From positions 1 to 64,000 of the forward strand of contig VHCW01000006.1 in NCBI GenBank assembly GCA_016871575.1: DNA of 64,000 nt. The letters are read 5' to 3'. Both the position numbers and the translations under genes were made by a program. This stretch comes from Verrucomicrobiota bacterium. Its GTDB lineage: Bacteria; Verrucomicrobiota; Verrucomicrobiia; Palsa-1439. Of the stretch, positions 13,583 through 19,200 are shown in pieces. Position 1 is the stretch's first letter. Every line of letters starts with the position of its first letter. Under the pieces are notes generated by a model. It ran no database searches, was not told the DNA's origin, and saw only the letters and a list, made by a program, of their open reading frames with translations.

Positions 13583-15214
13583 TTATTTGGTTTTTTGGCG
13601 GCGGGTGGCGTAGTGGGCGCGGACTTCGTCCAGCGTCAGGACGCCGTCGTTGTTCTTGTCCATCTGCTTGAAGTCGGGCGTCGGAAATTCTTCGGGCGTG
13701 AGTTTGCCATCGCCATTCTTGTCGTATTGCTTGAAACGTTCTTCGATGCCGCCGGCGGCTTTGCCGCGCTTGCCACCAGTTTGCGTCCGACCATCCTGCC
13801 GGACCCATTGAGCGGGCTTCATCTGTTTGTCCCACGCGGCGTAGGCGGCTTGGAGTTCCTTCAACTTCGCCGGCTCCTTCGCGGCGAGATCGGTCTTCTC
13901 GCCGATGTCGTCCTTGAGATTGAAAAGCTCCACTTCGTTGCCGCGCTCTTGCACGAGCTTCCAGTCACCAACGCGCGCGGCGTGTTTCTCGCCGGCACGC
14001 CAGAAGAGTTGGTCGTGCGGTCGGCCGGTTTGTTTGCCGAGGAGGAACGGGAGGAGGTTGACGCCGTCGAGCGGTTTGTCAGTCGGCAGCGGCACGCCGG
14101 CGGCGGCGAGCGCCGTGGCGTGGCAGTCGAAGCCCATCACCATCTCGCGATAGACCATGCCCGCCGGCAGTTTGCCTTTCCATTGCGCCACGAACGGCTC
14201 GCGGATGCCGCCCTCGTAGAATTGGGCTTTGTAGCCGCGCAACGGTTCGTTGCTCGCCGTGGTCTGCGGCGTCGGGCCGCCATTGTCGCTGTAGAAGAAG
14301 ATCAACGTGTTCTCTTCCTGACCAAGCGCGCGGACTTTGCCGAGCACGCGGCCCACGGCGTCGTCCATCGCGGCAACCATCCCGGCGTGGATGCGGCGCG
14401 TGCCGGTCAGCTTGGGGAAACGCGCCATGTACGGTTCCGTCGCTTCCATCGGCGAATGGACGGCGTTGAATGCGAGGTAGAGGAAAAACGGTTTGTCCTT
14501 GCTGCGGTCGAGGAACGCGACCGCCTCGCGTGCGAAGGCGTCGGTGAGATATTCTTTCTCGTCGGTGACCGTCTGGCCGTTGCGGATGAGAGGATCATTG
14601 TCAGCCTTGCCCGGCATGTAGGTCCGCGCGCCGCTGAGGAAACCGTAGTGATAATCGAAGCCACGTTCGTGCGGCCGGAGTCCTTCCTTGAACCCGATGT
14701 GCCACTTGCCCATCATGCCGGTGGCGTAGCCGGCGGCCTTGAGGCGTTCGGCGAGCGTCGGCTCGGTGCGCGGCAGGCCGAAGTTCTCCGCCGCGAAACG
14801 TTCCGGCCCGGAGTTGTGCTCGAACCCGTAACGATGCTGGTAGCGCCCGCTCATCAGGCCCGCGCGCGACGGCGAACAGACGCAATGCGTCGCGTAGCCG
14901 TCGGTGAACTGCACGCCGTTCTTGGCGATGCTGTCAATGTGCGGTGTCGGGATGTCCTTGCAACCGGTGACGCCGAGGCCGGCGTAACCGAGGTCGTCAG
15001 CAAGGAAGATAATCACATTGGGTTTGCGCTCAGCGGCGAATGACGACGCGAGCGCACAAAGAGCGCCAAACAGCATCACCGGCAACCACTGTAGCCGCGG
15101 CGCTCCGTCGCCGCGCCTCCTTGATTTCACCGTGCCACACCCGCACGCCGGCGGAGCGGCGTGGCTACAGGATGTGGTCTTGTTTGTCTCAATAAACGAT
15201 GAGTTGTTCTTCAT
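13583..15214 (-). CDS. Sulfatase (formylglycine type) with C-terminal EF-hands
   Basis: A 543-residue exported arylsulfatase-family enzyme. Metal ligands are in FLADDLGYAGLG. The formylglycine motif is C113-S-P-S-R117 followed by AGLMSGRY. GKWHIG, YSDNGG and GGIREPFVAQW complete the S1 pattern. Two EF-hand loops end the protein (DKNGDGKLTPEE, DKNNDGVLTLDE). It would desulfate a glycan or aryl sulfate, needing an FGly-generating enzyme not present here. The leader is odd: residues ~15-42 are encoded by an inserted palindromic repeat, and the hydrophobic core (LFGALCALASSFA) comes after it. An internal start at 15076 would avoid the insert but lacks a Shine-Dalgarno; 15214 has AAAGGGAAC. Confidence 0.85.
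   Translation of the reverse strand: MKNNSSFIETNKTTSCSHAAPPACGCGTVKSRRRGDGAPRLQWLPVMLFGALCALASSFAAERKPNVIIFLADDLGYAGLGVTGCKDIPTPHIDSIAKNGVQFTDGYATHCVCSPSRAGLMSGRYQHRYGFEHNSGPERFAAENFGLPRTEPTLAERLKAAGYATGMMGKWHIGFKEGLRPHERGFDYHYGFLSGARTYMPGKADNDPLIRNGQTVTDEKEYLTDAFAREAVAFLDRSKDKPFFLYLAFNAVHSPMEATEPYMARFPKLTGTRRIHAGMVAAMDDAVGRVLGKVRALGQEENTLIFFYSDNGGPTPQTTASNEPLRGYKAQFYEGGIREPFVAQWKGKLPAGMVYREMVMGFDCHATALAAAGVPLPTDKPLDGVNLLPFLLGKQTGRPHDQLFWRAGEKHAARVGDWKLVQERGNEVELFNLKDDIGEKTDLAAKEPAKLKELQAAYAAWDKQMKPAQWVRQDGRTQTGGKRGKAAGGIEERFKQYDKNGDGKLTPEEFPTPDFKQMDKNNDGVLTLDEVRAHYATRRQKTK
15089..15170. repeat. 82-bp double-hairpin palindromic repeat (type B) inside the sulfatase leader
   Basis: Outer arms CTGTAGCC and GGCTACAG enclose two GC-rich hairpins with CGCTCCG and CGGAGCG cores. 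The layout matches the type A elements at 17442 and 19337 (short outer arms, two opposed hairpins). It looks like a dispersed REP- or MITE-like element, and it is read through in frame. Confidence 0.7.
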
Positions 15215-16231: not shown

Positions 16232-19200
16232 GGTTTCACCTGTGTTGTCTGTGACATTCTGAGGTCGAGATCGAGGAACTGGTCGGCCTTCACGCCGGCG
16301 AACGAGACGGTCTTGCCGCTGGGGAGCGTGACCTTGACGTCCGCTTTGGTTTGTTTGCCGAGACCGAAGTGGGCTTCGAGCGCGCCGCCGCTCTTGTAGC
16401 TGTGGTTAGCGTGAATCCAGCGATACTGTTTCATGCCGGCAGCGGTGAGTTCGACGCGCGCCCCGATCAGTTCGGCATCCTTCACGCCGCTGAAACGTAA
16501 GCGCAGCCAGTGGTTCTCCTTCGCGCCGTGCAGGCCGGTGTTCCAATAGACCTTGCTCTCGTAACGCGCCATGCTCAGCGCGGGGCCGGAGTTGTCGGGG
16601 TCGGAGGCGAAGACGAGATCGAGCAGGCCGTCGTTGTTGAGGTCGGCGACTTCACCGCAGATGCCGGAGCCGTCCAGACCGCTGAAGGTCGTCGGCTTCA
16701 ACTCGAACGTCCCGTCGCCGCGGTTCATGAACAGCGCGACGCGGGCTTCGGGGTTCATCGTCTCGCTACGGTCCAAGACGACAAAGTCCTGCCAGCCATC
16801 GTTGTTAAAGTCACCGAAGATCGCATCAGCGAAGTAAGGACGACGGTCGCCAGCTTCCATCGGCGCGCCGGGACGAGTTCTCGGCATCGGGGCGTCGAAG
16901 AACTTGCACCAGTCGCGATAGACCCAGTTCAACGCCGACAGACCGGCGGCCTCGGTCGCCTCCTCGAACTTAAAGCCGCCCTTGTTCTGCCAGAACCGGC
17001 CGCTGACGTATTCGGTACGCGGCGCCCAGCCCGGACTGGCCGGGCCGACGGCGAGCACGTCAAGCAGGCCGTCGTTGTCAACGTCGGCCAGCGAGATGTA
17101 CGGCAGGCCGGGCGCTTTGCCAACTGGTGTCGTGGTTTTGGTTGCGCGGTCGAGTTTCAGGTGTGCTTCACAGGCGAGACCGTTGCCGGTGATCTTCTCG
17201 AACTGAAGTTTACCGGTCTCTTTCAAGAGGTTCTTCCAACAGAACACGCCTTGCCGGTATTCGATGGGCGAATACGGCAGCAACAGGTCGCGCACGTCAA
17301 TGTGGTAGCTCTGGATCAAGTCGAGATCGCCATCATTGTCGAGGTCGCGCAGGTTGATGTCGGGACCGGCCTTGTCCTTCGCGCTGTCGTGGTAAAAGCC
17401 GCCGAAGTCCGGGACAAGTGAAGTGCCGCCGATGTCTTCAAAGTACCCATCACGCTCCGCGTGATGTTTGCCCGGTTTTTCATCACGCGGAGCGTGATGA
17501 CTACTATGAAACACAAACAGCCGGCTGTGCGGGAAGCCTCCCATGGCGTCGCCGATGTTATCGCAACCGATGGCGATGTCGAGATGGCCATCCTTGTTCA
17601 CGTCGCCGATGGACGGCTGGCGGTTGTAGGCTTGCTCGTTCTGGATGCCCATCTTCGCCGACACGTCGCGGAAGACATCCCAAGCGCCGTCGCTGAGGTA
17701 AAGACCGTTGCCGAGTTTCTGGTCGTTCGGATTGGACCGGCCGCCCGACATCTGCGCGTGGCGGGTGACGAACAGGTCGAGGAAACCGTCGCCATCGAAG
17801 TCGGCAAGGTTCGGTATCTGGCCGCGCCCAAAACTGTCCAGCGTCACCTTCGAGTCGAGCAGCTTGATCGTGTGCGGGTGAAACTGGAAGCCGCCGTCGT
17901 TGATGAACACGCGCAACTTTTCGCCGGCACCCCAGCCTCTTCCCGTGCCGCGCACCGGGGAATACGTCGCCACGATGTCGAGCAGGCCATCCTTGTTCAA
18001 GTCCACGATGGCTACGCCATTCATCCCTTCCTGAATGCTGGTGAAGCCGGGCACGACGATGCTCTCGAACATTTGTCCGCGTCCCGCCGCGTCGCGCGAC
18101 GCATCGCTGTCGGGCATCTTCTTCAACGGCGGCTCGCCCGGTCGTTGCTCGGCGATTTCCTCCTTGTGTTCTTTTGGCTTGATGGTGCTGAGCTGCGCCG
18201 CAACTGATCGTTGCCGTTTCGGTGCGGCGGGTCTTGCCGAACCGACGGCACTCTCGGGAGCTTGCTCGATGTAAATGCGATTGCCATCGGGATCGGTCAC
18301 CAGCAACCGCTTGTCGCCCTCGATTTTCGCGCCACGTTTCACCAGTCCGGCACGCACGGCCGCCAGATCAGCAACGCGCAACGTCACGCTTCGCAATCCC
18401 GGCGCATCCGGCCCCGCGTCGGCTTCGCGCGGACGTTGTCCCTGCGGCGCGGAAAACTTCACGCGTCCTGCGCCGGTGGCGAACAGATACATCTTCATGC
18501 TGAACGGCGGCGGCAGATTCCACGGATCGAACTCCTCCAAGCCGAGCACCGCGCCGTAAAATTTCCGCGCCGTCGCGTCGTCGCTGACGGCCATGCCCCA
18601 CGTGAACGTCTCACCCGACGCGCTACGCGGCACGCCCATGATCTCAACGACGTTGCCGTCGGGATCGCGCGTCATGCTGACGTTGCCGCCCTTCATCGGC
18701 GCCGGATAACCCGCCTTCACGAGCCGCTCGCTGATGGCGGCCGGGTTGTTGAACCAAAGCGAGAACCACCGGAAGCCGTTCTGCGAGAGCATTTGTTTCA
18801 TCGGGTTACCCGTTTGCGGCGCAGGTTTTTCGCCCGGAACCTTGCGTAGCCGCAGATAGCTGTCCGCCCACTCAAACAGTGTGCCCGGCTCGACCTCGCG
18901 CATCCCGATGCCGTCGCGATAAAACTTCGCGCACGCCTCGACATCGCGCACGCAAAGCTCGAACACCGCGTCCACCGCCGTGAGTTCGCCGGCGGCCAGC
19001 GGTGCCGCTGGTTGTTCCGGGGCGGCAGGTCGCGTCGTCCGGCGTGCAGCGAAATACGCCTGCACTTCCTCGATGGTCAGAGAACCGTCTTTGTTTTTGT
19101 CCGCCGCGTCGAAGAACGGCAGCGAACCTCCCTCCTCCCGGCTGACTTTGCCATCGCCGTTGCGGTCGAGTTGCTTGAAGCGGTCAGCGAGGCCGCTGCC

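What the first reader, a model, noticed from the sequence alone, without database searches (positions are those of the whole stretch)
15089..15170. A second repeat type splits the sulfatase signal peptide
Seen: an 82-bp double hairpin (type B, CTGTAGCC/GGCTACAG ends) lies between the Shine-Dalgarno-supported start and the hydrophobic core of the sulfatase leader, encoding residues ~15-42. It may impair export or force use of an internal start at 15076. Types A and B share their architecture and CGCTCCG/CGGAGCG cores, so they may be one family moved by one enzyme.
Basis: partly seen in the sequence, partly recalled or inferred. Interest (0 to 1): 0.55.

Follow-up and report, generated by a model that had tools for sequence, protein, structure and literature searches.

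The report
Mobile repeat inside an export leader
A short hairpin-pair repeat has inserted itself into the front of a sulfatase gene and is most likely translated as part of the protein's export tag, a known kind of bacterial repeat in a location where it seems to be tolerated again and again.

Summary
Confirmed. Window 15090-15169 is an inverted pair of GTAG-type REP units (a BIME), in frame between the conserved start (15214) and the hydrophobic core of a sulfatase leader; it encodes residues 16-42. The family is real: 18 hits in the draft genome (control 0), present in 18 of 384 class genomes, with covarying stems. In three relatives a REP-associated tyrosine transposase (RAYT) is flanked by such repeats; none was found in the window's own draft. 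Types A and B have different heads, so 'one family, one enzyme' is not supported. 'Impaired export or internal start' is not supported either: a repeat-free orthologue keeps the same start, the insert adds an Arg-rich stretch, and the core is intact; export was not measured. Of 117 type-B clusters I accepted insertions in 8 genes; 6 are in export-leader n-regions (sulfatase, GHL10-like, pseudopilin, FlgI, FliP, lipoprotein), against 0 of 6 for type A. Intragenic GTAG REPs are published; my searches listed no report of this leader bias, which rests on small numbers and my own curation. A new member of a known kind with an interesting positional pattern.

The parts
15090..15115 (+). type-B REP unit 1: TGTAGC + stem CGCGGCG / loop CTCCGT / stem CGCCGCG
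   Evidence: 0 mismatches to the family pattern; stem covariation in the family
15116..15143 (.). spacer between the two REP units
15144..15169 (-). type-B REP unit 2 (inverted): TGTAGC + stem CACGCCG / loop CTCCGC / stem CGGCGTG
15089..15170 (.). whole inverted pair (BIME) with its terminal C/G; encodes residues 16-42 of the leader
13583..15214 (-). sulfatase with C-terminal EF-hand motif, 543 aa
   Evidence: PF00884 3.2e-59
15212..15214 (-). start codon ATG, preceded by AAAGGGAACC; context conserved in orthologue L094
15035..15088 (-). hydrophobic core and cleavage region of the signal peptide, residues 43-60 (WLPVMLFGALCALASSFA)
   Evidence: cleavage site by eye, no signal-peptide predictor was run
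   Evidence: sequence printed; read by eye

Best explanation
This is a non-autonomous REP dimer (BIME) of a GTAG-type REP family. A RAYT (single-strand HUH/Y1 transposase) is its probable mover: such enzymes recognise the GTAG head and hairpin. Here it landed in the n-region of a sulfatase signal peptide. The two REPs happen to be stop-free in the frame used and code for Ala/Gly/Pro/Arg-rich peptide, so the leader became about 27 residues longer and more basic just before a hydrophobic core and cleavage region that are left whole. It would then be removed with the signal peptide, leaving the mature enzyme unaffected, so that the insertion is close to neutral. Shown: the family, its hairpin, the conserved start, the open frame, RAYTs with such repeats in relatives, and recurrence in leaders. 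Inferred: movement by that RAYT, translation, normal export, neutrality.
For: Family and hairpin: 18 hits, control 0; 146 units, 96 distinct, each of seven stem pairs 94-98% standard with double-sided changes such as A-T/G-C, G-C/C-G and C-G/G-C/T-A. Distribution: 18 of 384 class genomes, 6 of 11 in the window's family, own genome included. RAYT: a 156-aa ORF in G010 lies among five type-B REPs, four within 170 bp, and scores 98.4 bits to NCBIfam's REP-associated tyrosine transposase, cut-off 80; 3 of 30 RAYT loci have hairpins with type-B head and loop and these three form one group, 93/88. Start: orthologue L094 (86%) has the same upstream gene end and ...ACCAGGCCATGAAGAAC, leader MKNILTILSSFCLLASSFAAE; L099 MKNTLVILSSFCLLASSFAAER. 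Gene intact: NG86 dN 0.080, dS 0.50 against L094; 37 synonymous and 11 nonsynonymous codon changes on the window branch, 42 and 14 on L094's. Charge: REP-encoded peptide net +4. Recurrence: five more leaders; in those five no ATG/GTG/TTG lies between the last REP and the hydrophobic core, so translation from one of these codons must cross it. In the pseudopilin a GTG does lie between its two REPs.
Against: No type-B RAYT was found in the window's own draft (95% complete): 11 Y1-type candidates, flanks examined for 10 (C136 not). Translation and export are not measured and no signal-peptide predictor was available. The leader carries 14 further residues absent from L094 and L099 that the REP does not explain. 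The purifying selection seen may predate a recent insertion. The group of three RAYTs falls short of the tree program's own mark for strong support (95/80).
Confidence: 0.8

Rival explanations
1. The REP cut the leader: the protein is now made from an internal start at or near 15076 with little n-region, or is no longer exported.
For: In-frame TTG, GTG and ATG lie just after the element. PMC3733652 warns that many REPs at protein N-termini are really upstream of the true start (section 15 read), and I set aside about half of the 20 rejected clusters here for that very reason.
Against: The distal ATG with its context is conserved in orthologue L094, which has no repeat. Internal starts give MPVMLF.., MMLF.. 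or MLFGAL.. with no Lys/Arg; no Shine-Dalgarno-like match precedes them (sequence, by eye). Five other leaders with the same REP have no such start between the last REP and the core.
Confidence: 0.12
2. Not only tolerated but selected: the REP raises basic charge before the core, or its mRNA hairpin near the 5' end slows early translation, which helps export.
For: The segments are net positive in all five leaders measured, +2 to +6; for FliP the segment typed includes residues beyond the single REP. 6 of 8 accepted genes with type-B insertions have them in leaders.
Against: The leader occupancy is explained just as well by low constraint in n-regions and loss of harmful insertions elsewhere. 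The insertion is absent from the two orthologues with alignable leaders, so there is no sign of retention.
Confidence: 0.12
3. Assembly or binning artefact.
For: The genome is a 257-contig draft.
Against: The site lies 15 kb inside an 87-kb contig; both flanks match L094, and copies with different flanks occur on other contigs.
Confidence: 0.02

Closest known systems
GTAG-type REP/BIME families and their RAYTs (REPtrons), incl. Opitutus terrae (PMC3733652; abstract, passages and section 15 read)
   Same: GTAG head, short hairpin, inverted dimers, RAYT flanked by the repeats, some copies inside genes; the PVC group is among the hosts
   Different: Intragenic copies there are variably located along ORFs and N-terminal ones were largely set aside as possible misannotation; 'signal peptide' does not occur in its main text. 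Here most accepted in-gene type-B copies are in export leaders. I did not match the type-B consensus to their Figure 1 (figures not held).
Rickettsia palindromic elements (RPE) (passages in PMC3733652 and PMC2229807)
   Same: palindromic repeats inserted in frame and read through in functional proteins
   Different: different, CGTC-tagged sequence; [quoted passage not shown] Here GTAG-tagged, with a RAYT in relatives.
[quoted passage not shown] passages read)
   Same: a small mobile repeat contributes to a predicted bacterial signal peptide
   Different: RU-2 carries a hydrophobic cluster and joins a putative exported protein; here the repeat extends the basic n-region of established exported protein families

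Membership tests
GTAG REP / BIME | GTAG (or GTGG) 0-2 nt 5' of a fully paired stem of at least 7 bp | tested here: met
   GTAG + 1 nt + 7-bp stem; criteria taken from passages of PMC6006769
GTAG REP / BIME | short loop (2-5 nt in that study's scan) | tested here: inconclusive
GTAG REP / BIME | dispersed copies, often as inverted dimers | tested here: met
   117 clusters collected, single units and inverted pairs both occur
GTAG REP / BIME | at least one copy within 1000 nt of a RAYT (tnpAREP) gene | tested here: met
   3 of 30 RAYT loci, in G010, G338, G213; not found in the window's own draft genome
RAYT for the G010 enzyme | HUH motif, downstream catalytic Tyr, family model hit | tested here: met
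   MPDHIH at 65-70, SYEQKWEYV at 120-128 (read by eye; which Tyr is catalytic was not tested); NF047646 98.4 bits over cut-off 80; Y1_Tnp 29.6 over 23
RAYT for the G010 enzyme | binds or cuts the cognate REP as single strand | not testable with these tools
   needs biochemistry
Same family as type A of this window | same conserved head | tested here: not met
   consensus AAAGTASTC in 47 type-A sites against TGTAGYC in type B
Same family as type A of this window | same cognate transposase | tested here: inconclusive
   type-B hairpins flank 3 of 30 RAYTs; no type-A hairpin recognised at 44 loci, 41 distinct, so type A's enzyme is unknown
Rickettsia palindromic element | CGTC-tagged sequence | tested here: not met
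   GTAG-tagged; works like an RPE, is not one

The most novel reading that the evidence does not exclude
Signal-peptide n-regions are a recurrent safe harbour for one REP family: type-B REPs, stop-free and Arg-rich when read through, accumulate in frame in the n-regions of Sec, lipoprotein and pseudopilin leaders in three families of one class, while type A from the same genome accumulates in internal parts of enzymes. The coding property of a selfish hairpin would then decide which part of the proteome it can enter, and REP traffic would be a source of leader diversity.
Probability: 0.4. Interest if true: 0.62.

Novelty: new member of a known kind. Interest (0 to 1): 0.42.

Why it matters
REPs are usually described as extragenic, and N-terminal copies have been discounted as possibly misannotated starts. 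Here a conserved start, and five further leaders with no start codon between the last REP and the core, argue that such copies are translated. That makes a testable rule, that the reading frame of the repeat decides where in proteins it is tolerated, and it warns annotators against trimming such starts.

Tried and rejected
A second dispersed repeat in the orthologue's leader: the G032 (L095) leader holds two 17-bp palindromes TTTCCAATNCTTGGAAA. I first took them for an independent repeat family, but at up to 1 mismatch they occur nowhere else in that genome, so I dropped the claim.

A first count with one pooled codon model missed FlgI, FliP, the lipoprotein and TrpA; I repeated it with a model per genome and looser limits. 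Both counts rest on my reading of the listed frames, not on a blind gene caller. Of 117 clusters, 29 had a coding-like spanning frame (34 segments). I accepted 9 clusters in 8 genes (the pseudopilin has two) and set aside 20: because a better start seems to lie after the REP (L006, L026, L124, L133, L136, L196, L197, L200, L203, L218, L225), or because the frame looked like a shadow frame or stayed undecided (L106, L110, L111, L117, L118, L123 twice, L179, L226). Pfam was run on 11 of these 20 clusters' frames; not on L110, L136, L179, L196, L197, L200, L203, L218 or L226.

For type A, 28 clusters came from the best 30 of 76 listed rows; L043, L052 and L059 were set aside because a signal-type start follows the repeat, and L053 and one L056 frame as shadow frames.

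The hairpin list was refined, since one search printed nothing (a wrong pattern in my script). Pfam gave nothing for the pseudopilin frame; NCBIfam gave only sub-cut-off hits, to T2SS protein J and Verru_Chthon cassette protein C; the frame just downstream matches T2SS protein K. The terminase case is only at Pfam's cut-off (25.6 of 25.6).

Full report
What is there. The window lies in a 5.19-Mb draft genome of 257 contigs, 95% complete. On the minus strand 15214-13583 encodes a 543-aa sulfatase with an EF-hand motif. Between its start and its hydrophobic core sits an inverted pair of hairpins, 15090-15115 (+) and 15144-15169 (-), with a 28-bp spacer. Each unit is GTAG, one base, a 7-bp stem and a loop CTCYGN. 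As one strand the pair folds into a long hairpin, z -3.86.

It is a family. The single-unit pattern at up to 3 mismatches gives 18 sites in the genome and none for the reversed control. At up to 1 mismatch it occurs in 18 of 384 genomes of the class and 6 of 11 genomes of the window's own family, the own genome included. From places listed there (at most 10 per genome, so only part of, for example, the 32 hits in G008) and their surroundings I collected 117 non-redundant clusters, searched with up to 4 substitutions. They contain 146 GTAG-led units, 96 distinct. Each of the seven stem pairs is 94-98% standard, with frequent changes on both sides at three positions. The search pattern let the two sides vary independently at these positions, so it did not force this pairing.

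Its probable enzyme. In relative G010 a 156-aa ORF lies among five type-B REPs, four of them within 170 bp. It scores 98.4 bits to NCBIfam's REP-associated tyrosine transposase (cut-off 80). Of 30 RAYT loci whose flanks I read, 3 (G010, G338, G213) carry hairpins with the type-B head and loop, and these three proteins group together (93/88, short of the program's mark for strong support). The window's genome has 11 Y1-type candidates by two searches. I examined the flanks of 10 (not C136), and none has a type-B hairpin; four carry other GTAG or GTGG hairpins. So its type-B copies look orphaned, or the enzyme lies at C136 or in the missing part.

Types A and B. The consensus of 47 type-A sites is AAAGTASTC before the stem; type B reads TGTAGYC. 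A loose scan of 44 transposase loci (41 distinct) gave 14 matches to the type-A core, none of them a type-A hairpin by eye. The CTCCG-like loop is shared, and also appears in a third repeat (head TGGAGGG) on both sides of the G000 RAYT at C131. They look like sister repeat types rather than one family moved by one enzyme; type A's enzyme was not found.

Does it damage the gene? The nearest orthologue, L094 (86%), has the same end of the upstream gene and the same start context and a short leader, MKNILTILSSFCLLASSFAAE; L099 has MKNTLVILSSFCLLASSFAAER. So 15214 is most likely the ancestral start. Other relatives differ: L095 has an unrelated leader and L096 reads on from the upstream gene. The window leader is 41 residues longer than L094's: 27 from the repeat and 14 not explained by it. 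The gene is otherwise intact, with dN 0.080 and dS 0.50 against L094. Changes on the window branch (37 synonymous, 11 not) resemble those on the L094 branch (42, 14). The repeat adds five Lys/Arg and one Asp before the core. The internal ATG at 15076 has neither a ribosome-binding match nor a basic residue. Export is therefore more likely kept than lost, but it was neither measured nor predicted with a dedicated program.

Relative age. The type-A insertion in the neighbouring FG-GAP gene (17440-17507) is shared with L094, while the type-B one is not. The type-B insertion is thus probably the younger of the two.

Recurrence in leaders. Of 117 clusters, 29 had a coding-like frame across them (34 segments). 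I accepted 9 of these, in 8 genes. Six genes have the repeat in the leader, 7 to 18 residues after the start I chose: this sulfatase; a GHL10-like protein (L021, GTG start) and a type II pseudopilin (L020, two REPs before FTLLEV) in the same genome; FlgI (L132) and FliP (L116, a single REP) in G309; and a DUF1353 lipoprotein (L180, lipobox LSGC by eye) in G334. In the five other than the sulfatase no ATG, GTG or TTG lies between the last repeat and the core; in the pseudopilin a GTG lies between its two repeats. The two remaining genes have it internally: TrpA in G256 (Pfam match in two stretches) and a terminase-like gene in G010. If in-gene insertions fell at random and leaders took 5.7% of codons (my assumption of 20 in 350), 6 or more of 8 has P 8.7e-7; at 10% it is 2.3e-5 and at 15% 2.4e-4. 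Of 28 type-A clusters of the window's genome, 6 are internal with coding on both sides and, by my reading, none is in a leader, though some stand just before signal-type starts. The two-family contrast has Fisher P 0.0097, but type B comes from 18 genomes and type A from one. Selection against harmful insertions, my manual curation and small numbers all limit this.

Precedent. PMC3733652 (abstract, passages and section 15 read) reports GTAG REPs inside genes, the highest number in Opitutus terrae, and treats N-terminal ones with caution; the term 'signal peptide' does not occur in its main text. PMC2759123 and PMC2229807 (passages; [quoted passage not shown] Eight searches of the open library (listings seen) showed no report of a REP bias to leaders. 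The kind is known; the positional pattern may be new.

Noticed in passing
window 17440-17507 (-): Type-A BIME in frame inside the neighbouring FG-GAP repeat gene (SSHHAPRDEKPGKHHAERDGYF). Orthologue L094 shares it, L099 has a shorter version, L096 a different insert at the same place.
   Followed up: partly
L040 (G000:C90) and L050 (G000:C39): Type-A repeats sit in frame in two other sulfatases (L040, L050 by its motifs only), apparently in the same loop after the LLPTLL/LYPTVL motif.
   Followed up: no
L039 and L041 (G000:C90, C135): Two related genes carry the type-A BIME at the same place before GPWEVSFDP: inherited by duplication, or a repeated target.
   Followed up: no
L096, around 3001: In this relative the FG-GAP gene and the sulfatase are in one open frame: the sulfatase leader is gone and the two look fused.
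   Followed up: no
G032:C559:14283-14331 (L065, L095): The 86% orthologue's leader contains two 17-bp palindromes TTTCCAATNCTTGGAAA found nowhere else in that genome at up to 1 mismatch.
   Followed up: partly
L173 (G000:C131:1636-2049): A RAYT flanked on both sides by inverted pairs with a TGGAGGG head and CTCCGT loop instead of GTAG.
   Followed up: no
L112 1112-2017 (-) (G256:C5): Tryptophan synthase alpha with a 20-residue in-frame type-B insertion; its Pfam match comes in two stretches.
   Followed up: partly
window 13583-15214: The sulfatase's near relatives sit in MAGs labelled Lentisphaerae, Pirellulaceae and Sumerlaeota and in a different family (G032, 86%), while the same-genus genome's best is 43%: transfer or binning error.
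   Followed up: no
L058 1494-1568 (G000:C109): A type-A repeat ends right at a gene start so that ATGAGTACTATG reads from the repeat into a leader (by eye): the repeat may supply an alternative start.
   Followed up: no
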